Assembly: GCA_023266575.1 (NCBI GenBank)
Contig: JAHFPV010000006.1
Coordinates: forward strand, 1 to 64,000
From: Sphingobium sp.
GTDB taxonomy: Bacteria > Pseudomonadota > Alphaproteobacteria > Sphingomonadales > Sphingomonadaceae
Length of the DNA stretch: 64,000 nucleotides
Reading direction: 5' to 3'
A program made the position numbers and the translations under genes. A model generated the notes under the pieces. That model was not told the origin of the DNA. It worked only from the letters and a program-made list of their open reading frames with translations, and searched no databases. Of this stretch, positions 22,574-44,555 are shown in pieces. Position 1 is the stretch's first letter, and every line of letters begins with the position of its first letter.

Positions 22574-22675
22574 CTACAAACGCCAAAAACTGTTACTATT
22601 ACAGACGCTTACTTCCGGCCGAACGGGGGTCCCGTTTCGAAGCCGATTCACAGCTCAAGGCCGGATAAATTTTGC

Positions 22676-22707: not shown

Positions 22708-22756
22708 AAATGCTACGCATCACCTCGGGTGTCGCGCTTCAAATCGAAACCGCCCT

Positions 22757-24861: not shown

Positions 24862-26481
24862 TCAGATCACCAGAGGTAGCAGACCGCTTGGAGCCCGCCC
24901 TAGAGGCGGGTTTTTGCGTTGTACGGCGATCGACAGGATGCCCACGAGATCGCCGCGCACATCGATCTTCAGTTCGCCGCCTTCAGGCACCAATGTGATC
25001 GCCTGGATGAGCGAACGAATGACCTCAGCCGCCTCGAAGCGCTTGTTCTCGTCGTCATGCTCCAGCGCTCGATAGAGATTGTCGAGTTGAGCCCGATAAT
25101 GGTGGGCCATGTTGGGATGGAGCAGGGGAGGGGGCTCCTGGGCTTGGGCGAGGTCGCGCTCCAGTTCCTTCTTACGCGTTTCGAGCCCTACCATTTTGGC
25201 GTTGATCTTGTCTGCGGCGCCGCCCCGCAGGATCAGGTTCACAAGCATGTCGAGATCACGGTCGATCTTTTTGATCTCAGCCTGTGCGCTGCCTATGGCT
25301 GCGCCTGCATCGCCCCTTAGCCTATTGGTTTCGCGCGTGAACTCGTCGCAAAACTCGGCAAACAGGGCAGGATCCATCAGATGATGGCGAAGGGCGTGAA
25401 GCACGCTCCCTTCCAGACGATCGCGTCGGATATTGAGGCGGTTGTAACAGGTACCCTTGTTCCGGGCTGCCGAGCAGCCCAGCATCATCGCTGAAATCAT
25501 CGAATATCCGCCGCCGCAGCAACCGCATTGCAACAGGCCGGACAGGAGATATTTCTGGCGGCGGCGATCGCGGAAGTTTGCGGAGCCCACTGCTGGATTT
25601 AATTGATCCACCTGGCAGGATTTTTGCCGGTCCTTGGCATGCTGCCAAAGAGCATCATCGATGATGCGCAGTTCGGGCACGTCCTGAATGATCCATTCGG
25701 ATTCCGGGTTGGGCCGGGCTTGCCGTTTGCCGGTATCGGGATCCTTGATGAAGCGTTGCCGATTCCAGACCAGCTTGCCGACATAAAGCTCATTGTTGAG
25801 GATGCCGGTGCCGCGCTTGGGATTGCCATTGATGGTGCTGAAGCCCCAGGTGCCGCCGGTTGGTGCCTCGATACCCTCCTTGTTCAGTTCGGTCGCGATG
25901 CGTTTGGCCGATTTGCCAGCGACATAGTCGCGGAAGATGCGCTGGATGACGCTTGCCTGTGCGTCATTGATGGAGCGGTCGCCCCGGATCAGTTCGCCGT
26001 TGGCATCGAGCCGTTTGACGACGTCATAGCCATAGCTGTTACCACCGCCCGACTTACCTTGCTCGACTCGGCCACGCTGTCCACGCCGTGTCTTGTCGGC
26101 GAGATCTTTCAGAAACAGGGCGTTCATCGTACCCTAGAGGCCGATATGCAGATGGGTGATCTCGCCTTCTGACAGGGTGACCATCTTCACGTCACTATAG
26201 GCCATGCGATTGAACAGCCCGGCAATATCCTCCTGATCGCGCTACAGGCTATCCATGGCCTCAGCCAACACGAAGTTGAAGCGGCCCCGACTGGCGTCTG
26301 CGATCAGTGCCTGAATGCCCGGCCGCAGCGATCAAGCACCGGAAATGGCATGATCGGTATATTGTTCGACAATCTGCCAGCCCTGCTTCTCAGCGTGGAG
26401 GCGGCAGATGCGTAACTGGTCGGCAATGGAAGCGTCGCGCTGATTGTCGGATGAATAGCGGGTGTACAAGGCAACCTTCAC
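24862..26481 (-). pseudogene. Large serine recombinase with three in-frame stop codons
   Basis: A 540-codon frame starting at a GTG (26479-26481) reads KVALYTRYSSDNQRDASI (serine-recombinase catalytic N-terminus, Ser at about 10-11). It then hits TGA (26332-26334, codon 50), TAG (26242-26244, codon 80) and TAG (26134-26136, codon 116), without any frameshift. The segments between the stops match the family (RPGIQALIADASRGRF, RDQEDIAGLFNRM, EGEITHLHIGL). The distal 421 codons (from the ATG at 26127) are intact: recombinase domain, zinc ribbon (LLQCGCCGGGYSM, CSAARNKGTCYNR) and coiled coil (about 290-350 of the distal part). Without the N-terminal domain it should not cut DNA. Confidence 0.85.
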
Positions 26482-26499
26482 GGAACGGAACTCCTCGTC

Positions 26500-26631
26500 T
26501 CAGGAGCGGGTCGTGCGGCGCTCCTCCAGCATCTCCAGATAGGCCCTCCGCGCGGCACGGCAGGCAAGCAGGCGAACCAGCCTGACCAGACGCGGATCGG
26601 GGCCGCTGCCAGAAGATGCAAGGTTGAGCAC
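26500..26631 (-). CDS. 43-aa protein upstream of the recombinase
   Basis: A GTG-started frame, too short for most gene callers, encoding SGSGPDPRLVRLVRLLACRA and an acidic/basic C-terminal helix. It ends 18 bases before the recombinase start. Similar DPRLVRLVxLLA peptides are found directly in front of this type of recombinase in alphaproteobacteria, which is my reason for listing it. It may itself be a 5'-truncated remnant. Confidence 0.4.
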   Translation of the reverse strand: MLNLASSGSGPDPRLVRLVRLLACRAARRAYLEMLEERRTTRS

Positions 26632-26994
26632 CGGCTCTCATCAGGCCGAGGGAACTTCTTTCGCTGCTGACGGCTACCAAGCCCCAAGGTGAATCCGATT
26701 ACAGCAGATTGCTAGGTGCTTTAGATGCAGTTCGTCCCGCCGGACCGCTAAAGCTGCCAGGCGAAACGGAATGCTTTCGTTTCGGGATAGATTCCGCGGA
26801 GGCCCGGCGGTCAATGAATAGATAATCACTCGGCCTGCCCGCCACGCTTCCGATCATGCTGTGGAATGCGTGGTTCCGCAACGGTTTCAGTTTTGCAAAA
26901 TGTTGCTCGCACCGACATTGCCCGGATAATCCAGCGGGCGATGGTATCGGAAAAGGGCAATCACGACCCTTCACGGACACTCAGCCTCTGATTT
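26632..26994. other. Intergenic region, no recognised gene
   Basis: A 93-codon minus-strand frame (26699-26980) exists but has no recognisable domain, and its composition looks like a chance frame. No repeat or RNA gene was recognised. It marks the edge between the mobile region and the transporter locus. Confidence 0.35.
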
Positions 26995-28332
26995 TCAGTT
27001 CCTAGCTGCCGACAATCTGTTTCTCCGTGCGGTATGCATGAAGAGAAGTAAAAGCGCGATTGGGCCGAGGATCGTGGCAGGCAAAGCATAGGCGAAGCGG
27101 ACCGCGTCCGCGGATGCTATGCCTGATGGGCCCGCCATGATTTTCATCAGCCACAGTGCGCCGCCGCCGCCCAACCCCATGGCAATTTTAAGCGTTACAC
27201 TACTCATACCGTAATAGACGCCGCCCAGCCGCCCCATATCCTGCAACTGTTCGTCGGCAAGATCAGCGACCATCGCGCGCAACAGCATATAGTCGACTCC
27301 CCATCCCAGTGCGCGGACGGCAAGGAAGGCGGCAAATATAACAGGCTGACCTTCCGGGATACAAAAGAGCAGCGGCGCCGTCAGTCCCTGCCAGCCATAG
27401 GCGATCATCAAAGTCCGCTTTCTGCCGATCCGGGCGCTGACCCGGCTCCACATCGGCAACGTCGCCAGTGCAAGCACGGGCTGGACCAGCAGCAACGCGG
27501 CACCCCAACGGCTCAATCCCAATACGTCCTCGGCCAGAAACAGGAAGCTGCTGGCCGCCGCTGCATCCATGATGCCGGTCAGCACATATAACGCCAGAAT
27601 CGTACGCATCGACCGATTGCGAAGGATCGACAGAAACAGCAGCACTGGGTTGCCGACCTTCGGCGGCGTGGTGAGGTCGGCGGGTTCCTTGAACAGAAGG
27701 ATCACCGCCACGACGGTGATGGGTGCCAGCAAGGCGATGGCCCAGCCCAGCATTGCCATCTGGCTGTCGCGAGGAATGGCAAAACCGCGCTCCATCAGCG
27801 CCATGATCCCCAGTAGGCCGAGTGACCCCAACAATCCGAACCACACTTTGGCCCCCATGATGCGGGTGCGCTGATGCTTGTCTGCCGACAGTTCCAATCC
27901 CCAGCCGCCATGAGGCGTGATGATGAAGGAATAACCCAGATGCAGCAGCAGGCTGGCCGCTATAATTTGCGTCAGTCCAGCGCCAGGCGGAGCCAGGAAC
28001 AGCATTAGTGCGCCCACCGGGACCAGCGCGGCCCCCAGCGCCATCCAGGGTTTACGCCTGCCCATGGGCGTGCGCACCGTATCGCTCATCCAGCCTATGA
28101 TCGGGTCTGCGATCGCGTCCAGAAGCCTCGCTCCTAGGAGGATTGCGCCGACAGCGCCCAATGCGATCCCGATGTCCAGGGTCAGAAACCGCGGCAGATA
28201 AGCACGCCATGCCATTTCGATGGCTTGAAAGAGCAACACCGGCAGAGAGAAGGCAGCGAGCCGGACGCGGCTGATTTGCATGCCAGTCGGACGGATCGGC
28301 GGGTCCATCCCCGAAGGACGGCCTCCGCGCAT
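26995..28332 (-). CDS. GPH-type MFS transporter (glycoside-pentoside-hexuronide:cation symporter)
   Basis: About 445 aa with 11-12 predicted membrane segments; the start may lie at 28308 or 28281. Typical GPH features are GARLLDAIADPIIGWMSDTVRTPMGRRKPW in the first loop and GVDYMLLRAMVADLADEQ in the second half. It is predicted to move a sugar or glycoside across the inner membrane with a cation. It lies 58 bases downstream of the tandem TetR gene on the same strand, next to TonB receptors and secreted hydrolases. It would import the released sugar or inositol product. Confidence 0.82.
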   Translation of the reverse strand: MRGGRPSGMDPPIRPTGMQISRVRLAAFSLPVLLFQAIEMAWRAYLPRFLTLDIGIALGAVGAILLGARLLDAIADPIIGWMSDTVRTPMGRRKPWMALGAALVPVGALMLFLAPPGAGLTQIIAASLLLHLGYSFIITPHGGWGLELSADKHQRTRIMGAKVWFGLLGSLGLLGIMALMERGFAIPRDSQMAMLGWAIALLAPITVVAVILLFKEPADLTTPPKVGNPVLLFLSILRNRSMRTILALYVLTGIMDAAAASSFLFLAEDVLGLSRWGAALLLVQPVLALATLPMWSRVSARIGRKRTLMIAYGWQGLTAPLLFCIPEGQPVIFAAFLAVRALGWGVDYMLLRAMVADLADEQLQDMGRLGGVYYGMSSVTLKIAMGLGGGGALWLMKIMAGPSGIASADAVRFAYALPATILGPIALLLLFMHTARRNRLSAARN

Positions 28333-28390
28333 GCTTGGCCGCTACAGCGCATCCATGACAGCTTCGTGAAGCGACATGTGCCGCGCAAGA

Positions 28391-29581
28391 TCAGAGCAAG
28401 GCCACCAGATCTTCCAGCTCGGCACGGATCGGCGCACGCGCTTCGTCCGCCGTCCAGTCGCCATAATGGCGCGATAGCGAAGAGAGGAAGCTCGATAACA
28501 AGGCTGGTTCCAAATGGCCCGGCGTAAGTCGATCCGGAAGGAGCATTTGAAGTAGCGACCGGGACGTGCTGCCACGTAGATAGCGAAGTTGAAGCCCAAA
28601 CTGGCGCAGCGCGGGATCGCGAGCAACCGCAAGATGCAGCGCGTCAATGCCACGACTGCCCGAATTTTCGGCCAAGAAATGGGCGATACTGCCCACCGTG
28701 TCGCGACCCGACGGCAAAACCGAGGTCTGCGCGCGCAGGCGCGAAACGGCTTTGATATAGAGACCGCCATAGCCTACCTGGACAAGCTCGGCCTTGGTCC
28801 GAACCTTATGCGACACCGTACCAAGCGTCAGGCCAGAACTGGCGGCCACAGCCCGATGGGTCAATCCGCCGGGGCCGACTTCTTCTACAAGGGCCGCTGC
28901 CGCCTCTACTATTTGTGCCATGATGCTGTCGTGATGCGGCTCGGCTGGCAAGGCTTCGAGCGCAGCAGCACGGGCAAAATCGCGCCAAGGCGCCGGTGGT
29001 ACGGGATCGCCCATCAGCCACGCCCCAACCCCGCGTGCAAATTCGTCGAGCCCGGCACGGTCGACGGACCGACGCCAATCGATCATGTGGAGGGAGGATT
29101 CATTTTCGAACAGGCGGTAGACAACCCCCGCACCTCTCTCCAAGCCGAAGCGCGCCGTCGCTTCCTGCCAGAAATCGATCCAGAGCCTTTGCCACTGTTG
29201 CTGGAGCGCGCTACCCGACTGGCTGTTGGCGCGCAGCAATTGCCCTTCGCGCCACGCAAATGCCAGACGTCGCTCGTTGCGTACCCAATCGTCCACGCAC
29301 GCAGCAAAGAAGGCGGGGAAAGCGCGCGGGTCGCGTGGCATACCCGCCAACTGTGCGATTCGATCGTCACACCATTGCTGCGCAAGCCCCTGAACATACA
29401 CCTGTGCCAGCCCCAACAACTGTTCCAGAGATCCAAAATGATGATAGATTGACGAGGAGGGAACAGAGGCGATGGCCGATAGCTGACGGGTTGAAACGCC
29501 TTCATAGCCGTATCGCTCCCATTGCTCTATTGCTGCATCTATAAGTCTGTAATCAGATGTTTTTTTAACATTTTCAGACAT
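28391..29581 (-). CDS. Tandem TetR-type regulator (two DNA-binding domains in one chain)
   Basis: 396 aa from the start at 29581 (MSENVKKTSDY), about twice a normal TetR. The first N-terminal helix-turn-helix (about 12-55) reads GYEGVSTRQLSAIASVPSSS then IYHHFGSLEQLL. A second TetR-like domain (about 225-270) reads EEVGPGGLTHRAVAASSGLT then GTVSHKVRTKAELV. Each is followed by a helical ligand-binding part. It is divergent from the TonB receptor at 29749 with a 167-base promoter gap, so control of the receptor/phosphatase genes and of the MFS gene is likely. The ligand is unknown. Confidence 0.82.
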   Translation of the reverse strand: MSENVKKTSDYRLIDAAIEQWERYGYEGVSTRQLSAIASVPSSSIYHHFGSLEQLLGLAQVYVQGLAQQWCDDRIAQLAGMPRDPRAFPAFFAACVDDWVRNERRLAFAWREGQLLRANSQSGSALQQQWQRLWIDFWQEATARFGLERGAGVVYRLFENESSLHMIDWRRSVDRAGLDEFARGVGAWLMGDPVPPAPWRDFARAAALEALPAEPHHDSIMAQIVEAAAALVEEVGPGGLTHRAVAASSGLTLGTVSHKVRTKAELVQVGYGGLYIKAVSRLRAQTSVLPSGRDTVGSIAHFLAENSGSRGIDALHLAVARDPALRQFGLQLRYLRGSTSRSLLQMLLPDRLTPGHLEPALLSSFLSSLSRHYGDWTADEARAPIRAELEDLVALL

Positions 29582-29748
29582 AGTTACCCGGTCAGTCGCT
29601 TGGCGATGGAAAGGTAAGGATAGCAAGAGCTTGCGCTGTCGGCGACCCTGGCGGTGGTCTATCTACGCATTTTCATATCACGAACGAACGTCACAATAAA
29701 TACATACAACCGTTCTAGCGGGTCGGCGCACCATCTGGGGGACCGACC

Positions 29749-32313
29749 ATGAAATTGCCTTGCAGCCTGCTATTACGCTCGACCGCTTATTGCGCCCTAA
29801 TCGCTTTCATCCCGTCCGCTCTCGCGGCGCAGGATGCGCCACCGTCGGCCGAAATGCTGGGCGAAGAAGGTGGCGAGATTATCGTTACCGGGTCAATCCT
29901 GTCGGCTCAGCAGGACTCGATCGCGCTCAAGCGCGCCGCCGTGAACCTGTCCGATGTGGCCGCGTCGGATGCCGTTGGGCGTTTCCCCGATCAGAACGCA
30001 GCTGCCGCCCTGTCGCGCCTGCCCGCCGTCGCCGTCCAGCGCGACCAGGGCCAGGAACGCTATATCCAGGTACGCGGCGCGCCCAATCGCTGGACCTCGG
30101 TGAGCATTGACGGCATCCCGATGGTGGGCGTGGACGAGGGCGGCGACACCCGCGCCTTCCGTTTCGATGCCATCCCCGCAGTGCTGTTGTCGCAAATGGT
30201 CATCAACAAATCGCTGACCAGCGACCTGCAGGCTGACGCGGTCGTCGCCACCATCGATCTGCGCACCTATTCGCCAATGGATCGCAAGGGGCTGCACGTA
30301 ACCGGCGACGCGGGTTATGGCTTTATGGACTTGGGCAAGGGCGAACAGCGGCAGGCGTCGATGCGTCTGTCCTGGTCGAACGACGTGTTCGGGGTTGTAG
30401 TCGGCGGGTCGCATTATCGCCGCAAACAGCTGACCGACAATCGCGAGGTCGGTGCCTATGATGCCAAGGGGCCGACCGAGTTCGACGTACGGCAATATGA
30501 GATCGAACGCTGGAATAACGGTCTATTCGGCGGCGTCGAATATAGTCCTGAAGAAGGTCAGCGCCTCTATGCCAAGGCGATCTTCTCCGAATTCAACGAT
30601 AATGAGCAGCGCAACCAATATGAGTTCCGCCTGGATCGCGCGACTGGCGGCACCCGCACCCAGGACAGCGGCACCCTGACGGGTGTGCCGTTGCGGGGCA
30701 CATTCAACTTTGGCGAATATCGCAACCGGAATTATATCGGCACGGTCGGCGGCGACTATAAGACAGATGACGGGCTGAGCGCGTCGTTCAAATTCAACTA
30801 TACCCGCACGGAAAATTCGACGTTCCTGCCCCTGATCCAATCATCGACCAGCGGCGCGAACAATCTGTCGCTCAGCTATGATAATAACGATCCCAATTTC
30901 CCGATCGTGACTGTCAACGGGCCGTTCAATCAGGCCAGCCTATCCGCAACCGGCACGATATTGATCGCTGCGCGGCAGAAGACGATATCGGACAGCTATA
31001 CTGCAAAGTTCGATCTTTCCAAAGAGATCGGCGATCTTACGCTGTCGGCAGGCGGGCTCTATGCCGATCGCGATATTACGGGCAATAACTTTTCTACCGC
31101 CAATGTCGCAGCCATCGGTGCCTTGGGCGCATCGGTCGGGCAACCGTTCAACATCAACGACTATGTCACGAACAGGCCCTGGGAGACTAGTTTTCCGCTG
31201 GGCGTGACGCTCAACTATGTCGACAATGGTGCGATGCGCGACGATGCCTTGAGCCTGCTCGACAGGCTGGAGGCGGCGGGCCGCTACAATCCCGCGCTCG
31301 ATGTTCCCGCGAGCGACCGTTATGCGCAGCGCGAACGCACCCTCGCAGCCTATATTATGGGCAAGGTCGAAAGCGGCGCGCTGACCGCCGTCGGCGGCGT
31401 CCGGATGGAGCGCTATCTGATGGACAATCGCGGTACGGTGGTTGCCGGCGGCATCGGAACGCCGCTTACCTTCACATCCAGCAAGACCGACTTTTTTCCT
31501 AGTCTCAACATCCGATATGCCGCAACCGACAATCTGGTCTTGCGGCTGGCTGGACAACGCGGCGTCTCTCGCCCGGCCTATGGGGCCATACGTGTGGGCG
31601 CGTCCATCAACGACACCAACAGCCCCGGCACAATCGGCGGCGGCAACCCTGCATTGCGGCCCGAATATACCTGGGGAGCGGATGCCAGTATCGAATATTA
31701 TCTACCCGGCAACGGCATGGTGTCCGTCGCCGCCTTCCATCGCTGGGTGGAAGATGTCCTGTACCAAAATCAGGCACCGGTTGGCAGCGACTTCTATGAC
31801 TTTGGCGGCGTGGACCGGTCGGCCTATCTGCTGAGCGGCACCTATAATGGCGACAAGGGCAAGCTTTATGGCGTTGAATTCAATCTGCTCAAGCAGTTCG
31901 ACTTCCTGCCGGGCGCGCTCGACGGCTTCGGCTTCCAAGGCAACGTCACCTTGCTCAATGGCAGCTTCGACACGCCCACACAGCAGAATATCGCTTTCCA
32001 GGGCATGTCCAAACGCATCGCCAATGCATCGCTCTTCTACGAGAAATACGGCATCTCGGCGCGGGTCAGCTATCAGTGGCGGTCCAACTGGCTCGATACA
32101 TTGGGCGGCTTTGGCAGCGGCGAATATCGCAAGGGCTATGAAAATCTCGACGTGTCGCTGCGCTATGCCCTCAATGACAATCTGACGCTGTTCGCGGATC
32201 TCGCGAACCTGACCGATGAAAAATACATCGCCTATCAGGGTACGACCGCGACGCCGACCGAAGTTGAGCAAATCGGATCGCGCTACCTGTTCGGCGTTCG
32301 CTTCAGCTTTTGA
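29749..32313 (+). CDS. TonB-dependent receptor (CirA/BtuB-type, phosphoinositide locus)
   Basis: 854 aa: signal peptide (about 1-27, ending SALAAQD), plug at about 40-165 (GEIIVTGSILSAQQDS, DAVGRFPDQNAAAALSRLPAVAV, RYIQVRGAP), then the barrel to a C-terminal Phe (FGVRFSF). No STN domain is present, so signalling through FecR is not expected. The start has a G-rich site (GGGGGACC) upstream. It is followed after 14 bases by a periplasmic phosphatase gene, implying uptake of a phosphorylated ligand. Confidence 0.9.
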   Translation: MKLPCSLLLRSTAYCALIAFIPSALAAQDAPPSAEMLGEEGGEIIVTGSILSAQQDSIALKRAAVNLSDVAASDAVGRFPDQNAAAALSRLPAVAVQRDQGQERYIQVRGAPNRWTSVSIDGIPMVGVDEGGDTRAFRFDAIPAVLLSQMVINKSLTSDLQADAVVATIDLRTYSPMDRKGLHVTGDAGYGFMDLGKGEQRQASMRLSWSNDVFGVVVGGSHYRRKQLTDNREVGAYDAKGPTEFDVRQYEIERWNNGLFGGVEYSPEEGQRLYAKAIFSEFNDNEQRNQYEFRLDRATGGTRTQDSGTLTGVPLRGTFNFGEYRNRNYIGTVGGDYKTDDGLSASFKFNYTRTENSTFLPLIQSSTSGANNLSLSYDNNDPNFPIVTVNGPFNQASLSATGTILIAARQKTISDSYTAKFDLSKEIGDLTLSAGGLYADRDITGNNFSTANVAAIGALGASVGQPFNINDYVTNRPWETSFPLGVTLNYVDNGAMRDDALSLLDRLEAAGRYNPALDVPASDRYAQRERTLAAYIMGKVESGALTAVGGVRMERYLMDNRGTVVAGGIGTPLTFTSSKTDFFPSLNIRYAATDNLVLRLAGQRGVSRPAYGAIRVGASINDTNSPGTIGGGNPALRPEYTWGADASIEYYLPGNGMVSVAAFHRWVEDVLYQNQAPVGSDFYDFGGVDRSAYLLSGTYNGDKGKLYGVEFNLLKQFDFLPGALDGFGFQGNVTLLNGSFDTPTQQNIAFQGMSKRIANASLFYEKYGISARVSYQWRSNWLDTLGGFGSGEYRKGYENLDVSLRYALNDNLTLFADLANLTDEKYIAYQGTTATPTEVEQIGSRYLFGVRFSF

Positions 32314-32327
32314 CGGAGACACAACCG

Positions 32328-33389
32328 ATGCGCATCACCCTTGTCACCGCGCTGCTGCTGGCAGCCTGGGTCGCCAGCCCTGCCCATGGACGCGAAGCGG
32401 CGACGCTCATGCGTTCCGACACGGTCACCGTGCTGCTGGATCGGGGCGACATCAATCCCGTGGCGATCTGGATCAGCCAGGACAGCACCATCGATGCGAG
32501 CGACCAACGCGTTGGCGCCGACACTATCCGTGCTGCGGCCAGGGATGGCAAGATCGCACTTTCCATATCGGCCGACCAGCGCCGCTATGTCCTGCTTCAG
32601 GACGGCCAGGGTGACGTGACCGTAGTTGCCGAGCGGGTTCTCCCGCTGGAGCAGGGCAGCAACTTTCGCGACATCGGCGGCTATGTCACCAAGGACGGCC
32701 GCACCGTGCGCTGGGGCAAGGCCTTCCGCTCCGGTGCGATGCCGCTGCTGAGCGAGGCGGATTACAGACTGATCGATCAGCTTGGCGTGGGATCGGTGGT
32801 CGATCTGCGGTCGCTGGAGGAACGGGAGGTCGCCCCCGATCTGGTGGACGACCGCACGGGCGCGTTGTTCATTTCCAACGATTATTCGCTCAAGCCCCTG
32901 ATGGCCAATTTCGGCAAGGGTAATGGCGAGAATGTCTATCAGGGCATGGAAAAACTGCTGATCCCGCAGTTGCGCGCCGTCTATCAACGGATCAACGCCG
33001 ATCAAGGCGCGGTCATCTACCATTGTTCGGCGGGGCAGGACCGTACTGGCATGGCGACCGCCTTGCTCTATGACATGCTGGGGGTTGATCGCGAGACGAT
33101 CCTGAAGGACTATCATATGTCGACTGCGCTGCGCCGCCCGCAATGGGAAATGCCTAAGGTCGATCCCGCCGACCATTCCAACAATCCCATCCTGAAATAT
33201 TATTTTTCGAAGGATGAGACGCAGCGCACGATCGCCGAGCCGCTCTACACGCGCAGTGGCGCATCGCACCTGACGCAGTTTTTCACCTACATTGACTCAC
33301 AATATGGTGGTTCGGAAGGCTTCATGAAAAAGGCCCTGCAGTTGACCGACGCCGATGTCGAAAAGCTGCGTGCGACTATGTTGCGGTAG
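32328..33389 (+). CDS. Periplasmic atypical lipid / tyrosine phosphatase (Y_phosphatase3, MptpB/LipA-like)
   Basis: 353 aa with a signal peptide (MRITLVTALLLAAWVASPAHG). The start at 32328 follows a GGAG site and is preferred over a TTG inside the receptor stop. The fold marker NFRDIGGYVTKDGRTVRWG (about 115-135) and the P-loop HCSAGQDRTG (Cys 233, Asp 238, Arg 239; CX5R) place it in the PF13350-type family. Related enzymes with HCxxGKDR loops dephosphorylate phosphoinositides as well as phosphoproteins; here Lys is replaced by Gln. Being exported and co-transcribed with a receptor, it probably removes phosphate from a nutrient. Confidence 0.85.
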   Translation: MRITLVTALLLAAWVASPAHGREAATLMRSDTVTVLLDRGDINPVAIWISQDSTIDASDQRVGADTIRAAARDGKIALSISADQRRYVLLQDGQGDVTVVAERVLPLEQGSNFRDIGGYVTKDGRTVRWGKAFRSGAMPLLSEADYRLIDQLGVGSVVDLRSLEEREVAPDLVDDRTGALFISNDYSLKPLMANFGKGNGENVYQGMEKLLIPQLRAVYQRINADQGAVIYHCSAGQDRTGMATALLYDMLGVDRETILKDYHMSTALRRPQWEMPKVDPADHSNNPILKYYFSKDETQRTIAEPLYTRSGASHLTQFFTYIDSQYGGSEGFMKKALQLTDADVEKLRATMLR

Positions 33390-33547
33390 CTCGCCAACCG
33401 GAGCATTCGATCAGAATCCGAGGCATTAAGATTTTGAATTCTCGGAAGCAGGCATTTCGTTTGCCCACTGGAAATTCGAGGGCATAACCGTCGTTCTGCT
33501 AAAACGACATTGCGGAACACTTCGCCATGGGGGGAGCTAGCCAACAA

Positions 33548-34753
33548 CTATCGAGCGCCGCTGCAACGGTACACCACTTTGTTGCAACGCCATCCCTGTC
33601 CAAAGGGGGCAAGGTGGTAGTCGTTGCCGTAGATATTGGGGGCGCTTAAATAATCGGTCGATATGATTTGTGCGCCACTGGCAAGCGCTGCGTCGCGGCG
33701 CTTGCCCGAACCATCGCGCGCATCAACGGTGTCAATGTCGGCCCGTGTCCGCACCAGATACCCTTGGCGGACGGCCTCGCCTATTTCCGCGCCGCGCGTC
33801 AGCGCATTGTCGAACAGCATGAAGGCGGTGTGCGCCATGCCCGCCTGACCTTGCACGAACGCGACACGCCCCTGGAGTGATGGGCGTCCGTCCAGATAGG
33901 GCGAGAAGGTTTTGAGATTCATTCCTGGTACGAGGAACAGGAACAGGAATTTTCCGCGGGCCTGCCCCAGCGTTGGCCAGCGTTTTGCCCGTGCGGCAGC
34001 TTCCAGTGTCGGCAAGTCTCCCCGAAGATCGTCGGGTGTGAACAGCTTGTCGCGGCCAAGGACGCTGCGAATGCTGTCATCCACTTCGTCGAACGCCGCC
34101 TTGTCGAACGGCGGGATCGCAGTCGCGTCGGGGATCGCCTTATCCAGACCTGAAAGCTTGGGCTCCAGTAGCACGAATATAGGGCTGTGGTTCGGCGTCG
34201 TATCCGACCATTGCTTCATCAGTGTCAGGCAGTATCGGAAAGTCGGGCATTGGCTGCGAAAATCCAGGTCAGCAACATGCAGCACCTTCATCCCCGGCTT
34301 GGTCAGTTCGTCGCGATAGATGGGCGCAAGATCGCTCACCCCCTGCTCGCGCAACTGGCGATAGGCAAGGGGATCGGCATAGGTGCCGCCCTTGGGATCG
34401 GGTTGCAGATCGATTTCAATGCTGCGAACGCCGCTGCGCAACTGTGCTTGCAACGGCATTTGCACATAGTCGAGGCTCGCGGCGATGTCAGTGAGGCGAC
34501 CAGGATGCTCATCCAGCATCTGCGCGCGCTGGGCGGGGAGCATCGTTTCGCTCGCCTTTGCCATGAGTGCGGACAAACGTGGCGCCATCAGCGCCATGAC
34601 ACGCGGATCGGCGGGGATTGCGTAGCTGTTGTGCGTGCCGACTACTTGTATTGCATTGATTGGCAAGGCGTCGGGGTTCGACACAGGCTGTGCCATAGCC
34701 ATCGCTCCACACAGGGCAGCAGCAAGGCAGGGCCCCATAACAAACCGTGTCAC
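33548..34753 (-). CDS. Secreted Ca2+-dependent phosphoinositide-specific phospholipase C
   Basis: 401 aa from a GTG at 34753 overlapping the GH92 stop (GTGA); an N-terminal signal peptide follows (GPCLAAALCGAMAMAQ). Motifs are VVGTHNSYAIPADPRV (first catalytic His), GVRSIEIDLQPDPKGG (metal/catalytic residues) and FVLLEPKLSGLD. These match the Ca-dependent PI-PLC family (PI-PLC-C1), which cleaves phosphatidylinositol-type lipids between glycerol and the phosphate. Last gene of the minus-strand operon with GH92, YdcF and a TonB receptor. Confidence 0.85.
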   Translation of the reverse strand: MTRFVMGPCLAAALCGAMAMAQPVSNPDALPINAIQVVGTHNSYAIPADPRVMALMAPRLSALMAKASETMLPAQRAQMLDEHPGRLTDIAASLDYVQMPLQAQLRSGVRSIEIDLQPDPKGGTYADPLAYRQLREQGVSDLAPIYRDELTKPGMKVLHVADLDFRSQCPTFRYCLTLMKQWSDTTPNHSPIFVLLEPKLSGLDKAIPDATAIPPFDKAAFDEVDDSIRSVLGRDKLFTPDDLRGDLPTLEAAARAKRWPTLGQARGKFLFLFLVPGMNLKTFSPYLDGRPSLQGRVAFVQGQAGMAHTAFMLFDNALTRGAEIGEAVRQGYLVRTRADIDTVDARDGSGKRRDAALASGAQIISTDYLSAPNIYGNDYHLAPFGQGWRCNKVVYRCSGAR

Positions 34754-36684
34754 AGACCTGTCTCCTGCTGTACCGATCGAACCGGCATGTCCATCAATCG
34801 CCTGCCGTTGATCCGAATGTTCCGGGCCATCGGCGTCGTGACGACATAGCGCGGATCGCCCGGCGTTATGGGATAGAGGCCGAGCATGGCCCATATGTAC
34901 CAGGCCGACATGGTCCCTGCGTCGTCATCCATGCCGTCGGCAAATCCCTGCGGCGACAAGGCGAAGCTGCGCCCTACCCATGGCTGTGGCCGGACGCCCG
35001 AATTGACATAGCGATGCGGTACGGATTGGGTGATGTAGCGGCGTACCACCTGTTCGGTGGCAGCCTTGTCGCCCGCCCATGCAAAGAGATAGGGCGTATG
35101 AATGTCGGGCTGGTTCGTCATGTTGAACAGATTGTCGGCGAAGAAGCGATCCAGCTCCGGTCGGAACCTCGGGCCAAGCGTCTGCGCCAGCCAGGGGAGA
35201 TCGAACACCGGCGCCCAGCGATACTGCGCCAATGTCCCCTGATACAGCCCCCGCGCCTTCACGATATCGGCATCCTCGCCAAGGTCGCGGAAAGTGGCCA
35301 GCCACATTGGACGATAGCTGAGCGCCTTCGCCCGAAACGCCTCCGCGGTGGCGGCTTCGCCCAGATCCGACGCCAGTTCGGCAATCGCCCAATCGTCATA
35401 GGCGGCCTCGATCTGTTCGTCCGGCGTCTCGCGGGCAAGCGTGGCGCTTTCGGCCACCATCCCGGCCAGTGCCGCCTTCGCGTCGAAATCAGTAATGCCC
35501 CTGCGTCGGAAGTCGAGCAGGGCAATCCCCCCATGTTCGGTGCGCACGGTCAGAAATGGCTCGCTTGGCGTTGCCCAGCGCGCCTTGCCGCTCTGGTAAA
35601 GCCTTACAAGGGAGCGTGCGATCTGTCCGGCGCGCTGCGGGTCGATCAGCGCCAGGAGGGGCATTTGCGTCCGGTAATTGTCCCACAGCGCCCAGCTGGT
35701 ATAATGCTGATCGCCGGGCGAAAGCTGTTGGACGATCCCATCGCTGCCGCGAAAGCGCCCGTCCGGATCGGCGATGGCGACGGGGGACTGCATCACGCGG
35801 AACAGCGAGGTATAGAAGAGCGCCTGCTCCTTGCGCGCGCCGCCGATATGGACACGGGAGAGTTGCCTGTTCCAGTCGGCCAATGTTTGCGCGGCAACGG
35901 TCCGGAAAGGACGGTTGCCCAGTTCGGTGTCCCGTACTGCCGCCGCAGCAGCGAGATCGACCGAGGAAAGGCCGGTGCGTAGTTCGACACTATCGCCGCT
36001 GCGCACGCGCAGCGCCAATCGCGCCTCTCGAGCCGCGTCGCCGTGCCAGAGCGCTGTCACTGGCTTGCCATTATGGGTCAGGCGTGTCGCGGAATGGAGA
36101 TGATAGATGCCTGCGTCACAGACGGTGCCTGCCGAAAAACTGGCGCGCAGATCGCCGTCCGGTTGCGCCTGCCAATGGGCGGCGATGCGCTTGGAATAGC
36201 CACGATCGAAGGTGACGATGACGTTGACCTGTCCGGACTTCGGCACGGTGAAACGCAGGCTGCCCGCGCCGCGTGTGGCAGTCATGTCCGCGATGATGCC
36301 GGGACCGTAACTGACGCTGTAATAGCCAGCATAGGCGCGTTCGCGGCGCTTGTCGATCGGCGCGGGACGTGTCGCATCATCATAGGCGAGCATGACCTTG
36401 ACGTCGCCGCCAGCCCCGCCGCAGCCGACTCCGACGCCGCGCGTGTGCGAAAATCCGGTGAGTTGGGTGGCGGCATGGTCATAGCCGGCATGGTTGGCGG
36501 GCGTTGTGTCGGGACCAAGCTGGACCATGCCAAAAGGCGCAACCGCCGCGGGGCTGAGTTGCCCATAGTCGGCAAGCGTACCCACGAACGGATCGACCAG
36601 CCGCCCTAGCTCACGCGCTGCCGCAGCCTCCCCAACCGCGCCATATGCCAAGACTGCCACCAGGATAACGGCGTGCCTCATCAT
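34750..36684 (-). CDS. GH92 alpha-mannosidase, secreted
   Basis: 644 aa from the start at 36684 (ATGA overlap with the upstream gene), with a signal peptide (about 1-22). It is shorter than many GH92 enzymes (about 740). Family landmarks are VDPFVGTLADYGQLSPAAVAPFGMVQLGPD, FSHTRGVGVGCGGAGGDV, SWALWDNYRTQMPLLALIDP and the C-terminal MDDDAGTMSAWYIWAMLG. GH92 enzymes are Ca-dependent exo-alpha-mannosidases, some acting on mannose-phosphate linkages. Context suggests trimming of mannose from a phosphoinositol glycan. Confidence 0.9.
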   Translation of the reverse strand: MMRHAVILVAVLAYGAVGEAAAARELGRLVDPFVGTLADYGQLSPAAVAPFGMVQLGPDTTPANHAGYDHAATQLTGFSHTRGVGVGCGGAGGDVKVMLAYDDATRPAPIDKRRERAYAGYYSVSYGPGIIADMTATRGAGSLRFTVPKSGQVNVIVTFDRGYSKRIAAHWQAQPDGDLRASFSAGTVCDAGIYHLHSATRLTHNGKPVTALWHGDAAREARLALRVRSGDSVELRTGLSSVDLAAAAAVRDTELGNRPFRTVAAQTLADWNRQLSRVHIGGARKEQALFYTSLFRVMQSPVAIADPDGRFRGSDGIVQQLSPGDQHYTSWALWDNYRTQMPLLALIDPQRAGQIARSLVRLYQSGKARWATPSEPFLTVRTEHGGIALLDFRRRGITDFDAKAALAGMVAESATLARETPDEQIEAAYDDWAIAELASDLGEAATAEAFRAKALSYRPMWLATFRDLGEDADIVKARGLYQGTLAQYRWAPVFDLPWLAQTLGPRFRPELDRFFADNLFNMTNQPDIHTPYLFAWAGDKAATEQVVRRYITQSVPHRYVNSGVRPQPWVGRSFALSPQGFADGMDDDAGTMSAWYIWAMLGLYPITPGDPRYVVTTPMARNIRINGRRLMDMPVRSVQQETGL

Positions 36685-37934
36685 GGATCGAGCGGGTCTA
36701 TGGCTTCGACATGGAAAGAGATCGGATCTGGCGCAAAGACCAGCGTGAACTGGTCGGGTCCTGGTGTCAGGCGACCGGGCTGCACGCCCATTTCGGCAAG
36801 ATTGCGCTGGGCCAGCACATCGCTGCTGATATATTGGATCGTGCGATGATCCGCCACTACCAAGGCGGGCCGATCGGTGGGGAATTTTGCGGCCAGCAAC
36901 AGTCGCGCGCAATTGCGCAAATTGGTGGTGGTGTGGCGCGCATGGGGTTCGATCAAGATACGGTCGGCAGGCACGCCATATTGCGTGATGAGCAGTCGCT
37001 TCATCTCCACCGCTTCGTTGAACGGTGTGCGGTTGGGATGCACATTGCCGCCCGACACGATGATGAAGGGCGCGACGCCCCGTGCGAACATATCGGCGGC
37101 GATCGACAAGCGGATGTGCCCCATCACGCCTGTGTGCGATTGCGCATCCTCCGGTCCGTGACCAAATACCAATAGTGCCGTGTAGGGCTTTTCACGCCAG
37201 TTCATCCTGTTAATGGCGCGGTTGGTTTCGGCATTGTCTCCGCCGAGCAAAGGCCGGAAATTTCCGGCGTCGATGCGTTCGTTCATTTGCAGCAGGCCCG
37301 CCGCATAACGCTGAGCGGGGTCGAAAAACAGGTCGCTGCCCTTCGCCTGCGCGGCGGTGGCGACGCCATGCGCGCTCAAAATGTCGGCCATCTGTGGCAG
37401 AGCCATATTGAAGATGGTCGCATCTATGACAGGATAGCGCGGCGCCACACCCATGGCATAGACAGCGATCACGCGGTTAATTGCAGCCGCCGTTTCCGCC
37501 CAGGCCGCCGCCACCAGATCGGCATCGGACAACGCCGCATATCGTGCAAAACGTCCCGATGGGCGCATCTGCCGTGCGACCAGCGCCTTGCCCAGTTTCG
37601 GATTTTCCACCAGGTACCGCAAGCGCGCCTGGACCAGAGCGATGTCCGCATCGGTCCATATCCACGCATCGGCCAGGCATTGCGGCGAAGGCGTGCATGG
37701 ACCTGTTGGAATGCGCGCCGCGCGATCGGCTGTCAGCGTTTGAAGCACGCTGTCATCCCGCAATGCCTGCCCCCAGCCATCCGCTGTCCGCATCATGGCG
37801 AACAGCGGAAAGACACGCGTCGGCAGCGTATCGGCAAAGGGTGATGTGTACCCCGCTGGCTCCTGCGCTGCCGTCGTTGCCGACGCCAGCGACAAGGCAA
37901 CTGCCACGCAAGCCCCGAAGGCAGACGCACGCAT
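36681..37934 (-). CDS. YdcF/SanA-type DUF218 protein, exported
   Basis: 417 aa from the start at 37934, with a signal peptide (about 1-23). The DUF218 domain fills the C-terminal half: TALLVFGHGPE, then GHIRLSIAADMFARGVAPFIIVSGGNVHPN, and YGVPADRILIEPHARHTTTNL. A large N-terminal helical part (about 25-220) is unlike the short YdcF of E. coli. Family members are linked to envelope or SAM-binding functions, and the enzymatic role is not established. Translationally coupled to GH92. Confidence 0.75.
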   Translation of the reverse strand: MRASAFGACVAVALSLASATTAAQEPAGYTSPFADTLPTRVFPLFAMMRTADGWGQALRDDSVLQTLTADRAARIPTGPCTPSPQCLADAWIWTDADIALVQARLRYLVENPKLGKALVARQMRPSGRFARYAALSDADLVAAAWAETAAAINRVIAVYAMGVAPRYPVIDATIFNMALPQMADILSAHGVATAAQAKGSDLFFDPAQRYAAGLLQMNERIDAGNFRPLLGGDNAETNRAINRMNWREKPYTALLVFGHGPEDAQSHTGVMGHIRLSIAADMFARGVAPFIIVSGGNVHPNRTPFNEAVEMKRLLITQYGVPADRILIEPHARHTTTNLRNCARLLLAAKFPTDRPALVVADHRTIQYISSDVLAQRNLAEMGVQPGRLTPGPDQFTLVFAPDPISFHVEAIDPLDP

Positions 37935-37944
37935 CAGGTGCAAA

Positions 37945-40464
37945 TTACCAGCTCCGGCTGAGGATAAAGCGGAAATTGCGGCCGAACACCGGACGACCAT
38001 AGATCGCATCGCTTGCGCCCTGTCCGGCAAGCTGGTCAGTGCGCGGGTTGCCTTCGGTCAATCCCTTCGCATTGGTGAGATTGTCGCCGACCACCTGGAA
38101 GCGCCATTTGCCATAGGTCATCGCCGCACTGGCGCCGAACGTCTGATAGGCCGGCAGCGCGGTAAGATTGAAAAGATCGACGTAGCGACGACCGACCCAT
38201 TCATAACGTCCCGCGATCTGCAGTTCGCCCTCGCCCACCGGGAAAGTGAACGATGGGCGCACATTGCCGAAAAATTTGGGTTCACGGATGATCTGGTTGC
38301 CGTTCACGGCGCTGGGATCGGCACCTGACGAGTTTTGCAGGTTGCGATACTGCGCATCGGAATAGGTGACGGAGCCGGCCAATTCAAACCAGCGGACGGG
38401 CGTGATCTTGCCATCGATTTCTACACCCTTCACAACAGCTTCGCCGATGAAAGGCACGGACTGGTCGTTGCGGCCGGTCAACGGGTTGAAAGCTATGAAC
38501 GAGGCGTTGAACGGGTTAAACTTGGTGTAAAATCCCGTCACATAGACATAGGCAGGGCCATAGCTTGCCTTGACGCCCAATTCATACTGACGCGCTTTGG
38601 TCTTGATAATGGTGGGCGCTGGGTTGGATACCACGCCCATCTGCGGGGGTACTTCCAGATTGGAGACACGGCCATAGGCACCCAAATTGCCATTGAAATC
38701 GTAATTGGCGCCGAGTGTCCAGTTAGTCGCCGAAGGCTTGAGCGTCTGGGAAACGATCGCGCCGGTGAAGGCGCGGGTATTATTATCGGCTATCGTGGTG
38801 GCGTCGCCCAGATTGGCGCTGGCCGACAGTAACGAATAGCCTTCATAGTCGTACCATTCCTTGCGGATGCCACCGTCGATCTTCAATCCGTCGGTCACGT
38901 CCCAAGTGTCGTTCGCGTAGATGGCGATCATCTTCGCATCGGCCTTGCCCTGATTGAGCGTGGTCGTGTAGCGCAAGACGCCATTTTGCGTGACCGAACC
39001 CAGCACGGCGCCCGTGGCCGAATAAGCGACGAGGTCGAGCGTGCGCGGCCGACTCTGAACCTCGATCAGCATGTCCTGATAGACCTGGAACAGCGTATTG
39101 CCGTAAAATGATCCATAGGTGCCAACCCGCACGTCATGCGTGCCAAAGCCGGTTTCGAATTTGCGGGTCACGCTCAGATCGGCCTGTCCCGAATAGAATT
39201 TCGATTCCGAAACGCGGTACTGGCCGGACATGACCAGCCCGGAAGCGGCATAGGGATCATAGGCCGTCGCGCCGTTCGTGCCTGCGATCGCGTAACCCAG
39301 GCGCGCGACGTCCGCGCCAAAAGCCGTGCGCGCGGCCGCCAGATTGCTGGCGATAAAGGCATTGCCATCGACCGGATTGGTGGTCGAATAGAAAGCGTCG
39401 AAGCTGCTTTTGCCCTTGGTAAACCCGCCCTTGGCAGAGACGAGCCAGCCGTCGAAATCGCCTTCATACTGGATGCCGGCATTGAAGAAGCGGATATGGC
39501 GGCCATCGGCCAGATCGCGGGTCAAGCCCTGCGTCACGCCCGCGCCATCACGATATTTGATGTTCACGTTGCGCAGCGACGGCGAGTTCATCGTGCCGGT
39601 GTGATAGTCGATATAGGGATCCAGCGAGACTGACGGATTGCGCGGATCGGCGATCGGGATCGGCAGATAGAACAGGTTGTGATCGTTCGTATATTGCATC
39701 GCCACCTTGACGAAGCCATTGTCCAGATCGTGCTTCAGATTGGCGCGGATCTGACCACCTTTGTCGTTGGGAAATCCGGCGTCGCGATAGCCATCATGCT
39801 GGCGCAGGAAGCCGCCAATCGCATAATAGGTGTTTTCGCCAACTGGGCCTGACTGCATGGCGTCCAGCCGGTACAGACCGGTATCGCCCAACGTGATCTG
39901 CGCCTTGCCACGCGATTCGGGGCCGCCGGTCGCAGTGATATTATTGGCAATGGCGGCGGCGCTGCTTGCGTAAATTGGCGCAGGGCCACCGCGGACGATT
40001 TCGACGCGCTCGGTCATCAGATCGTAGCGGTTCATGCCGTCGCCGGAGTTGAAGAACACGCCGTCGATTTCATGATAGAGCGGCAGCCCGTCCTGCTGGA
40101 AGAGCAGATAGCCGCGATCCGTCGGAATACCGCGCACGCGGGTGATGTTCTGCACTTCACCGCCAGTCGCTTCCACCTGGATGCCCGGAACCGTGCCGAG
40201 CAGATCGGCGAAGTTCTTGGGCGCGATCTTCTGGACTTCGGCCTCGCCAAGCGAGTTGACCGCATAGGATACGTCAAAGCGGCGTTGGGCGCGCGCGCTG
40301 CCCGTTACGACGATGTCCGATTGCGGCTCTTCTTCCACATCCGGTGCGGCGGCTGGCGCGGTTTCTTGCGCGGCAGCAATGCCCGACACCGACACCGACA
40401 GCGCCAGTGCGCTGAGCGACGTGAGCAAAATGGCGGCTTTGGATTTCTTGACTATAGGTTGCAT
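37945..40464 (-). CDS. TonB-dependent receptor (first gene of the GH92/PI-PLC operon)
   Basis: 839 aa from the start at 40464, preceded by GGGGGAG. Signal peptide about 1-33, TonB box region SDIVVTGSARAQRRFD, plug with FADLLGTVPGIQVEATGG and VEIVRGGPAPIYASSAAA, barrel ending in a C-terminal Trp (FILSRSW). It has no STN domain. It opens the operon receptor, YdcF, GH92, PI-PLC and would import the partly digested glycolipid or oligosaccharide. Confidence 0.9.
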   Translation of the reverse strand: MQPIVKKSKAAILLTSLSALALSVSVSGIAAAQETAPAAAPDVEEEPQSDIVVTGSARAQRRFDVSYAVNSLGEAEVQKIAPKNFADLLGTVPGIQVEATGGEVQNITRVRGIPTDRGYLLFQQDGLPLYHEIDGVFFNSGDGMNRYDLMTERVEIVRGGPAPIYASSAAAIANNITATGGPESRGKAQITLGDTGLYRLDAMQSGPVGENTYYAIGGFLRQHDGYRDAGFPNDKGGQIRANLKHDLDNGFVKVAMQYTNDHNLFYLPIPIADPRNPSVSLDPYIDYHTGTMNSPSLRNVNIKYRDGAGVTQGLTRDLADGRHIRFFNAGIQYEGDFDGWLVSAKGGFTKGKSSFDAFYSTTNPVDGNAFIASNLAAARTAFGADVARLGYAIAGTNGATAYDPYAASGLVMSGQYRVSESKFYSGQADLSVTRKFETGFGTHDVRVGTYGSFYGNTLFQVYQDMLIEVQSRPRTLDLVAYSATGAVLGSVTQNGVLRYTTTLNQGKADAKMIAIYANDTWDVTDGLKIDGGIRKEWYDYEGYSLLSASANLGDATTIADNNTRAFTGAIVSQTLKPSATNWTLGANYDFNGNLGAYGRVSNLEVPPQMGVVSNPAPTIIKTKARQYELGVKASYGPAYVYVTGFYTKFNPFNASFIAFNPLTGRNDQSVPFIGEAVVKGVEIDGKITPVRWFELAGSVTYSDAQYRNLQNSSGADPSAVNGNQIIREPKFFGNVRPSFTFPVGEGELQIAGRYEWVGRRYVDLFNLTALPAYQTFGASAAMTYGKWRFQVVGDNLTNAKGLTEGNPRTDQLAGQGASDAIYGRPVFGRNFRFILSRSW

Positions 40465-41106
40465 TGTGCGACTCCCCCGCTTGGATGCCGGGCGGTTAAG
40501 GGCACTTCGCGACAGAGCCATGACAGTCTGACCTGTCAATGCGGGAATGGTTGCATATTTTGCGTATCGCCAGAGCGGTTCGCCTTGGCAAAGTCGCCAA
40601 GTTCGGGGGCACACTGATCACCGAGGACTGCGCCACGCCCGATTGCTCGGCAGCAACATGCCGGGCCTTTGATATTGCGCAGTGAACGGCGTTCGGATCA
40701 GGTGTGCGCCGCAGGCCCGCTGTGCATGTTGGCGGTGTTTACGATCTTGTCCATGTCGCTGAGACTATCGATTCAGTCGCTTGTTTGTTTGCAACGACCA
40801 CGCCAAATCGAGTTGAATGAAGCGGTTGAGCGAGTGACTCCCTCGATCATCTGTCCGTGCTAGATTCCGACAGTGTTTTTCGGTCGTCATGGGTTTTACG
40901 ATACGCAGGCGTTCGCCAGGTTCGGCGCTGCTCCGCCAGAGATCAACGCAAAGCCGTCGGATTTCATGTGATTGTCGCCGAGTTGCTGTGCTTCAGCCCG
41001 CACGATAACCGTCCACTATCCGTCTAGTCTGTCTGGGACGGATAAGCCGTGATAGCCTCTCCTTCTGAACCATGTTTGATCAAGGCCGATGAAAGCTGGG
41101 AATGGG
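40465..41106. other. Divergent intergenic region
   Basis: This 640-base gap should contain the promoter of the minus-strand receptor operon and of the plus-strand GH78 remnant. No gene, RNA or clear terminator was recognised. Short frames here have no domain. Confidence 0.35.
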
Positions 41107-44491: not shown

Positions 44492-44555
44492 GGGTTGCTT
44501 CCTTTCCGATATTTTCACAATGGAGGCGCGCTAACGGCGCGCGCCGGACGCAGGC

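What the first reader, a model, noticed from the sequence alone, without database searches (positions are those of the whole stretch)
26995..40464. Candidate locus for scavenging mannosylated phosphoinositides
Within 13.5 kb there is a secreted Ca-dependent phosphoinositide phospholipase C, a secreted GH92 alpha-mannosidase, an exported MptpB/LipA-like phosphatase (P-loop HCSAGQDRTG), an exported DUF218 protein, two TonB receptors, a sugar symporter of the GPH type and a tandem-TetR regulator. PI-PLC, a phosphoinositide-capable phosphatase and an alpha-mannosidase together match the bonds in GPI anchors, fungal or plant inositol phosphoceramide glycans, and mycobacterial PIMs. The families and the shared operons are seen. 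The substrate is inferred. I know of no described polysaccharide-utilisation-like locus with this set.
Basis: partly seen in the sequence, partly recalled or inferred. Interest (0 to 1): 0.78.

Follow-up and report, generated by a model that had tools for sequence, protein, structure and literature searches.

The report
Likely phosphate-scavenging locus with unusual mannosidase
A gene cluster in a sphingomonad-like bacterium, read at first as a sugar-feeding locus, looks more like equipment for taking phosphate from sugar- and lipid-linked phosphates, with a mannosidase that may cut mannose off phosphate.

Summary
All the named families are present, but the 13.5 kb holds two separately conserved modules. 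Module A (33.5-40.5 kb, minus strand) is a tight operon: TonB receptor, DUF218, GH92, PI-PLC. Receptor and DUF218 accompany GH92 in 42 of 54 fetched relatives; PI-PLC in 7 of 54. Module B (GPH symporter, tandem TetR, TonB receptor, phosphatase) occurs without module A elsewhere.

Two points change the reading. The GH92 has Gln at the general-acid position, in the window and 54 of 54 relatives. Its best structural match, by a narrow margin in sequence, is CcMan5, reported to cleave mannose-phosphate-mannose diesters (PMC5930347). And a PhoB-box-like site with one mismatch precedes the operon (40509-40526); similar sites precede phoX, a phosphate-porin-family gene and a T2SS gene, 3 of 9 sites examined.

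Best reading: a PhoB-controlled phosphorus-scavenging system, like Flavobacterium's 'phosphate utilisation systems', acting on mannosyl-phosphate and phosphoinositide diesters. Relatives with a ROK regulator (18 of 54) mostly lack a good box, which suggests a switch to carbon control. Regulation, activity and substrate are inferred.

The parts
40509..40526 (-). PhoB-box-like site CTGTCATGGCTCTGTCGC, about 42 bp before the TonB receptor's likely ATG (about 40467)
   Evidence: the only window match to CTGTCATNNNNCTGTCAY with one mismatch; one of 5 such sites in the genome; similar sites aligned in several relatives
37945..40467 (-). TonB-dependent receptor of module A (ORF open from 40614)
   Evidence: Pfam PF00593/PF07715; a homologue above 40% identity in 44 of 54 GH92 loci
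36681..37934 (-). DUF218 (YdcF-like) protein with an N-terminal helical domain (ORF open from 38030; start judged by eye)
   Evidence: PF02698; model pLDDT 89; YdcF 3ca8 among the fold matches (rank 8, E 0.074; none with E <= 0.001); found in 44 of 54 relatives
34750..36684 (-). GH92 enzyme with Gln at the general-acid position (LYQGTLAQYRW); start judged by eye
33548..34738 (-). PI-PLC, PF16670 family, with a signal-peptide-like start (judged by eye)
   Evidence: E 1.7e-95; PDB relatives 3h4w and 5fyo; His of GTHNSY and of VLHVAD invariant in 7 sequences
32310..33389 (+). PF13350 phosphatase, HCSAGQDRTG, with a signal-peptide-like start judged by eye (module B)
29749..32313 (+). TonB-dependent receptor of module B (TonB-Xanth-Caul type)
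29688..29705 (+). Degenerate Pho-box-like site, at the aligned position where L200 and L201 have good boxes
   Evidence: weak in the window itself (the best score of that upstream region was 5.3, at another place)
28391..29626 (-). Tandem TetR regulator (module B)
   Evidence: two TetR_N stretches
26995..28332 (-). GPH-type sugar symporter (module B)
   Evidence: PF13347; best NCBIfam match TIGR00792, below its cut-off

Best explanation
Module A is a PhoB-controlled phosphorus-scavenging operon. When phosphate is scarce, PhoB switches on a TonB receptor and exported enzymes. PI-PLC cuts phosphoinositide head groups from lipid. The CcMan5-like GH92 removes mannose from alpha-mannosyl-1-phosphodiesters (as in yeast phosphomannan) and leaves a phosphomonoester; a phosphate leaving group would need no general acid, which would explain the Gln. 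The receptor takes up the phosphorylated glycan or cyclitol, and DUF218 acts on or binds a product common to both routes. Phosphatases (the genome's PhoX; perhaps the module B phosphatase) then release phosphate. Shown: families, gene layout, the Gln, the site and its partial conservation. Inferred: PhoB binding, export, enzyme activity, substrate, transport, DUF218's role.
For: Gln at the acid position in the window and 54 of 54 named relatives, against Glu in 18 of 18 readable distinct comparison genes from other family GH92 loci (14 comparison rows unreadable and dropped). Best PDB match by sequence and fold is CcMan5 2xsg, also YQGT. Gln for Glu533 substantially lowers Bt3990 activity on mannobiose without abolishing it (PMC10167667, passages). 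Pho-box pattern: one mismatch here; 39 genome hits at up to 2 mismatches against 7 for the reversed pattern. Of 9 sites examined, 3 precede phoX, a porin O/P-family gene and a T2SS gene. Before the receptor in loci without ROK, 10 of 26 valid rows reach the 95th percentile of 540 control upstreams and 5 of 26 the 99th; with ROK 1 of 20 and 0 of 20. Dinucleotide shuffles: 14 of 26 no-ROK regions are matched by at most 5% of 60 shuffles, 0 of 19 ROK regions. Other phosphoesterases near related operons: PhoD (5 of 54), an S1/P1-nuclease-like protein. PI-PLC operons: 11 of 30 reach the control 95th percentile.
Against: The margin over Glu-type BT3130 is small by sequence (175.4 against 173.6 bits). 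The site is absent or weak in no-ROK relatives L110, L119, L147, L155, L161 and in the receptor-PI-PLC-DUF218 loci L067, L069, L070, L072. Only 1 of 30 PI-PLC operons reaches the control 99th percentile, and their 11 of 30 is inflated because the best of several upstream regions was taken. The reversed matrix gave 5 scores of 8 or more against 13 forward in the no-ROK set (L116 included), and its median there (4.3) exceeds that in the ROK set (-0.7), so base composition explains part of the contrast. Six of 9 examined Pho-pattern sites in the genome had no obvious Pho gene. ROK/MFS_2 variants of the same core point to sugar use. Mannosyl-phosphodiester activity rests on one characterised homologue at about 26% identity. 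Rows are related genomes, not independent events.
Confidence: 0.6

Rival explanations
1. One reading: one polysaccharide-utilisation-like locus that feeds on mannosylated phosphoinositides (GPI, GIPC, PIM) for carbon, with GH92 trimming ordinary mannosidic bonds.
For: PI-PLC and GH92 share an operon; a PI-PLC beside a Glu-type GH92 exists in L089; ROK and MFS_2 partners in some relatives.
Against: Gln in place of the general acid; PhoB-box-like site; the phosphatase, TetR and symporter form a separate module; PI-PLC is not found in 47 of 54 related loci.
Confidence: 0.15
2. Carbon-type scavenging of fungal phosphomannan: the GH92 is a mannosyl phosphodiesterase, but the aim is mannose, as the ROK/MFS_2 variants suggest.
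For: ROK in 18 of 54 and MFS_2 in 14 of 54 relatives, beside the core; 1 of 20 ROK rows reaches the control 95th percentile for a Pho box.
Against: The window operon has no ROK or MFS_2 gene in it, has a strong Pho-box match and carries PI-PLC.
Confidence: 0.15
3. Neighbouring genes without common purpose: the GH92 is a decayed mannosidase, and adjacency reflects gene gain beside mobile elements.
For: Transposase and recombinase genes lie at 19-26 kb; 0 of 5 other genomes of the genus in the sample have PI-PLC or GH92.
Against: The core recurs from sphingomonads to Chromatocurvus (L121); Gln and the surrounding motif are invariant among 24 aligned relatives, which decay would not give.
Confidence: 0.07

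Closest known systems
Phosphate utilisation systems (PUS) of Flavobacterium johnsoniae, PUSI in particular (PMC8115612, passages and section 16)
   Same: PUL-like TonB transporter cluster with two phosphodiesterases induced by phosphate depletion; the paper's table gives the name PI-PLC to Fjoh_4172 and pf16670 to its neighbour Fjoh_4173
   Different: Uses SusCD pairs; GH92 and mannosidase do not occur in the main text. Here phosphate control is inferred from a DNA site only
CcMan5, GH92 of Cellulosimicrobium cellulans (PDB 2xsg; Tiels et al. 2012 not held)
   Same: Best solved-structure match; same YQGT motif with Gln at the acid position
   Different: About 26% identity in the fold match; CcMan5 is said to carry a CBM32 (PMC10167667, passage); the window enzyme's activity is untested
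PhoB regulon of Caulobacter crescentus (PMC11208175, passages)
   Same: Alphaproteobacterial Pho response with TonB receptors, phospholipase C, T2SS and phosphatases
   Different: The word mannosidase does not occur in the main text; supplements were not seen
MptpB-type phosphatases (PF13350)
   Same: HCxxGxDRTG loop; PDB 1ywf and 8dhi match
   Different: Likely exported and tied to a TonB receptor here; activity unknown

Membership tests
GH92 glycoside hydrolase | Pfam GH92 above cut-off and GH92 fold | tested here: met
   PF07971 242 bits against a cut-off of 24.6; model matches GH92 structures. NCBIfam TIGR01180 scored 227.6, below its cut-off of 249.55
GH92 alpha-mannosidase of the Glu type | General-acid Glu (Glu533 in Bt3990) | tested here: not met
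   Gln in the window and 54 of 54 relatives
CcMan5-like mannosyl-phosphodiester GH92 | Gln at the acid position in a YQGT motif, CcMan5 as best match | tested here: met
   the sequence margin over BT3130 is 1.8 bits
CcMan5-like mannosyl-phosphodiester GH92 | Activity on Man-1-P-6-Man | not testable with these tools
   needs an enzyme assay
Ca2+-dependent PI-PLC (PF16670) | Pfam family above cut-off | tested here: met
   320 bits against 29.9
Ca2+-dependent PI-PLC (PF16670) | Catalytic histidines and Ca2+ ligands aligned to a solved PI-PLC (3h4w) | tested here: inconclusive
   His in GTHNSY and VLHVAD invariant in 7 sequences, but the alignment to 3h4w covers only the middle region
PhoB regulon | Pho box in the promoter region | tested here: met
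   one mismatch to CTGTCATNNNNCTGTCAY, about 42 bp before the likely start
PhoB regulon | Induction by phosphate starvation through PhoB | not testable with these tools
   needs expression data
Phosphate utilisation system (PUS) | TonB transporter co-located with phosphoesterases, induced by low phosphate | tested here: inconclusive
   co-location met; induction untested
Polysaccharide utilisation locus (SusCD type) | SusC/SusD pair | tested here: not met
   no SusD-family match among the ten proteins of 22917-40614 scanned with Pfam

The most novel reading that the evidence does not exclude
A glycoside hydrolase serves phosphate nutrition: a PhoB-controlled, TonB-linked operon in sphingomonads uses a Gln-type GH92 as a mannosyl phosphodiesterase, together with PI-PLC, to strip phosphorus from fungal phosphomannan and GPI-type surface glycans. 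In leaf-dwelling Sphingomonas the same core is under a ROK sugar regulator and turned to carbon use.
Probability: 0.4. Interest if true: 0.75.

Novelty: new variant of a known kind. Interest (0 to 1): 0.58.

Why it matters
Organic phosphorus in soil and on leaves includes phosphodiesters of sugars and inositol, and few bacterial routes into the glycan-bound part are known to me. A glycosidase recruited to the phosphate response would widen what counts as a phosphorus-scavenging gene. It would give a function to a clade of Gln-type GH92 enzymes that would otherwise be annotated as alpha-mannosidases, and give DUF218 proteins a testable context. The apparent switch between PhoB and ROK control of one conserved core would be a clear case of a nutrient system changing the element it serves.

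Tried and rejected
A single 13.5-kb locus: rejected. Phosphatase homologues occur in 162 of 298 family genomes. In the 8 stretches fetched around other copies, module B genes occur without module A matches at E 1e-5 (L200 all four; L201 three; L202, L203, L206 receptor and phosphatase; L204, L205, L207 phosphatase only).

GH92 truncated by a frameshift (its Pfam match ends at 411 of 464): rejected, because close relatives L108, L109, L111 and L158 end at about the same point, though more distant ones run on.

Pho-box scan over 660 bp: too diluted; replaced by the matrix test. In some searches the row L116 was an error (its region wrapped round to most of the locus). I removed it from the counts given here: 26 no-ROK rows, not 27; 10 at or above the 95th percentile, not 11. 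Five rows with receptors below 40% identity (L123, L124, L125, L148, L153) were left out of the no-ROK group; the 20 ROK rows include one such receptor (L130), which one search leaves out (19 rows).

DUF218 fold search: weak matches, YdcF (3ca8) among them, no function gained; a profile search of the PDB found nothing. Class-wide search for the Gln-type GH92: 2 of 385 genomes at E 1e-60, both in the window's family.

Literature: Tiels et al. 2012 is not held. In the listings of searches, and the passages read from PMC5930347, PMC5992200 and PMC10167667, I saw no statement on the Gln of CcMan5. Searches listed no paper that I recognised as describing a GH92 in a phosphate-starvation locus, but the lists were cut (20 of 23, 20 of 26, 12 of 1,114 and 12 of 22) and most subscription papers are outside that library. 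Streptomyces alpha-mannosidase SCO0948 (PMC7244524, passages) is described there as cell-wall degradation, so I did not use it.
Full report
Observation. NCBIfam supports the module B TonB receptor above cut-off; its GPH and GH92 models match below cut-off. The layout is two units. Module A, minus strand: TonB receptor (likely start near 40467), DUF218, GH92 and PI-PLC, with neighbouring genes overlapping or nearly touching. Module B: a TonB receptor and PF13350 phosphatase on the plus strand, with a tandem TetR regulator and a GPH symporter on the minus strand. The two units converge at 33.4-33.5 kb. The genome has one GH92 gene and one PF16670 gene. Signal peptides and start codons were judged by eye.

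Conservation. A scan of the species-genome collection with six short peptide patterns of the window GH92 gave 54 loci, sphingomonads except for Chromatocurvus (L121), a Stenotrophomonas MAG (L122) and Pseudoxanthomonas (L150); one record (L139) is titled only 'uncultured bacterium'. In these, receptor (above 40% identity) and DUF218 both accompany GH92 in 42 of 54, PI-PLC in 7 of 54, a ROK regulator in 18 of 54, an MFS_2 transporter in 14 of 54, two sulfatase-family genes in 4 of 54, PhoD in 5 of 54, and the phosphatase and the tandem TetR in 1 of 54 (L112) (counts; matches; Pfam names from representatives). Some contigs end inside the flanks, so these are lower bounds. L067, L069 and L072 carry receptor-PI-PLC-DUF218, and their genomes (G207, G281, G106) have no GH92 match. 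The receptor and DUF218 thus look like the common part, and PI-PLC and GH92 like alternative or additive front-end enzymes. A further exported-looking protein follows DUF218 in L067, L069 and L072 and follows GH92 in L121; it resembles S1/P1 nucleases weakly (best E 2.6e-4, below Pfam's cut-off).

Module B stands alone elsewhere: all four genes in L200, three in L201, receptor plus phosphatase in L202, L203 and L206, only the phosphatase in L204, L205 and L207; no module A match at E 1e-5 in any of these 8 stretches. Phosphatase homologues occur in 162 of 298 family genomes.

The GH92. Its best solved-structure match is CcMan5, by sequence (2xsg, 175.4 bits) and by predicted fold (mean pLDDT 79, TM 0.81 on the query). 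The Glu-type BT3130 is close behind by sequence (173.6 bits), so overall similarity alone would not decide. PMC5930347 (passages read) says CcMan5 targets Man-alpha-1,6-PO4-Man phosphodiester linkages, and gives the catalytic acid of three Bt enzymes as Glu535, Glu531 and Glu533. In the alignment the window has LYQGTLAQYRW, CcMan5 has YQGTLWQYHW and BT3130 has FTEGNAWQYFW, so Gln stands where BT3130 has Glu. That this Glu is Glu535 fits the spacing but was not checked residue by residue. Gln is found in 54 of 54 named relatives and in the window; 18 of 18 readable distinct comparison genes of other family GH92 loci have Glu (14 rows read in a wrong frame or too short were dropped). PMC10167667 (passages read) reports that Ala or Gln in place of Glu533 in Bt3990 substantially lowers, but does not abolish, activity on alpha-1,2-mannobiose. 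The Gln-type clade therefore should work poorly on ordinary mannosides but could work on a mannosyl phosphate, where the leaving group needs little help. That last step is inference.

Regulation. The pattern CTGTCATNNNNCTGTCAY (recalled consensus) with up to 2 mismatches occurs 39 times in the genome against 7 for the reversed pattern. The site before module A (40509-40526) is one of 5 with a single mismatch. I scanned ten open frames at nine sites. Three were expected Pho genes: PhoX (L163, also a single-mismatch site), a phosphate-selective porin O/P (L181) and T2SS protein C (L184). The others were a SnoaL-like protein and an HNH protein (both at single-mismatch sites), a dehydrogenase, an amine oxidase, an alpha/beta hydrolase, an acyltransferase, and a DUF3572 frame facing away at the phoX site. 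The fifth single-mismatch site (L165) was not scanned. So many of the 39 sites may be chance. PMC11208175 (passages read) lists T2SS, TonB receptors and phospholipase C in the Caulobacter PhoB regulon.

Across relatives, a matrix built from five genome sites and four recalled variants was scored on the region before the receptor. After removal of a faulty row (L116), 10 of 26 rows without ROK reach the 95th percentile of 540 control regions and 5 of 26 the 99th; with ROK 1 of 20 and 0 of 20. The best sites of the no-ROK rows mostly fall at a similar distance from the gene. Controls: at most 5% of 60 dinucleotide shuffles match the observed score in 14 of 26 no-ROK regions and in 0 of 19 ROK regions; but a reversed matrix gave 5 scores of 8 or more against 13 forward in the no-ROK set (L116 included), and its median was 4.3 there against -0.7 in the ROK set, so base composition accounts for part of the contrast. 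Against the reading, L110, L119, L147, L155 and L161 have no good site, nor do L067, L069, L070 and L072. PI-PLC operons in general: 11 of 30 at or above the 95th percentile of 307 controls, 1 of 30 at the 99th; this test takes the best of several upstream regions per operon, which inflates it. Module B: good boxes in L200 and L201, a degenerate one in the window at 29688-29705; none comparable in L202, L203 and L206 (best scores 7.7, 1.3 and 3.8).

TetR-like proteins over 330 residues were found 11 times in the 107 loci searched: 8 in loci with PI-PLC, 3 with the PF13350 module. Two TetR_N stretches were seen in four of four scanned (L063, L065, L103, L105); L129 showed one and L112 none that passed on its own. 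This hints at a shared kind of regulator, but the loci were chosen for those enzymes.

What it works like. PMC8115612 (passages and section 16) describes phosphate utilisation systems in Flavobacterium: PUL-like TonB clusters induced by phosphate depletion. PUSI holds two periplasmic phosphodiesterases, for which the table prints PI-PLC against Fjoh_4172 and pf16670 against its neighbour Fjoh_4173. Module A has the same logic with a different transporter type and an added GH92. I call it PUS-like, not a PUS, since induction is untested.

Verdict. The locus is more likely a phosphorus scavenger than a carbon locus, the GH92 more likely a mannosyl phosphodiesterase than an ordinary mannosidase, and the phosphatase module a neighbour that may or may not cooperate. 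The specific substrate (phosphomannan, GPI, GIPC, other) is not settled.

Noticed in passing
window 41089-42577: A GH78 rhamnosidase N-terminal domain alone runs up to a ribBA-like gene that lacks the first part of its DHBP synthase domain, as if a deletion had joined two gene remnants.
   Followed up: partly
window 19255-26127: An IS4/5-type transposase, another transposase-like gene and a serine-recombinase-family gene lie left of module B; 0 of 5 sampled genomes of the genus have PI-PLC or GH92, which suggests horizontal gain.
   Followed up: partly
L123, L124, L148, L153: The Gln-type GH92 sits behind two tandem sulfatase-family genes and no DUF218 match was found; the substrate may be a sulfated or phosphorylated mannoside.
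   Followed up: partly
L067 11823-12842, L069 7207-8301, L072 5372-6457, L121 12048-13061: Conserved exported-looking protein with weak S1/P1-nuclease similarity beside the same operon, below Pfam's cut-off.
   Followed up: partly
L089 (G294): A Glu-type GH92 next to PI-PLC and a different TonB receptor, with a moderate Pho-box score (11.8): an independent PI-PLC/GH92 pairing.
   Followed up: partly
window 43512-52478: Possible aromatic-degradation cluster: FAA hydrolase, cupin, alpha/beta hydrolase, glyoxalase/dioxygenase, FAD monooxygenase, metallo-beta-lactamase fold, TonB receptor.
   Followed up: no
window 53361-63508: TonB receptor, carboxylesterase, GH2 with malectin domain, MFS transporter and enolase-superfamily protein in a row: possibly another glycan-use cluster.
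   Followed up: no
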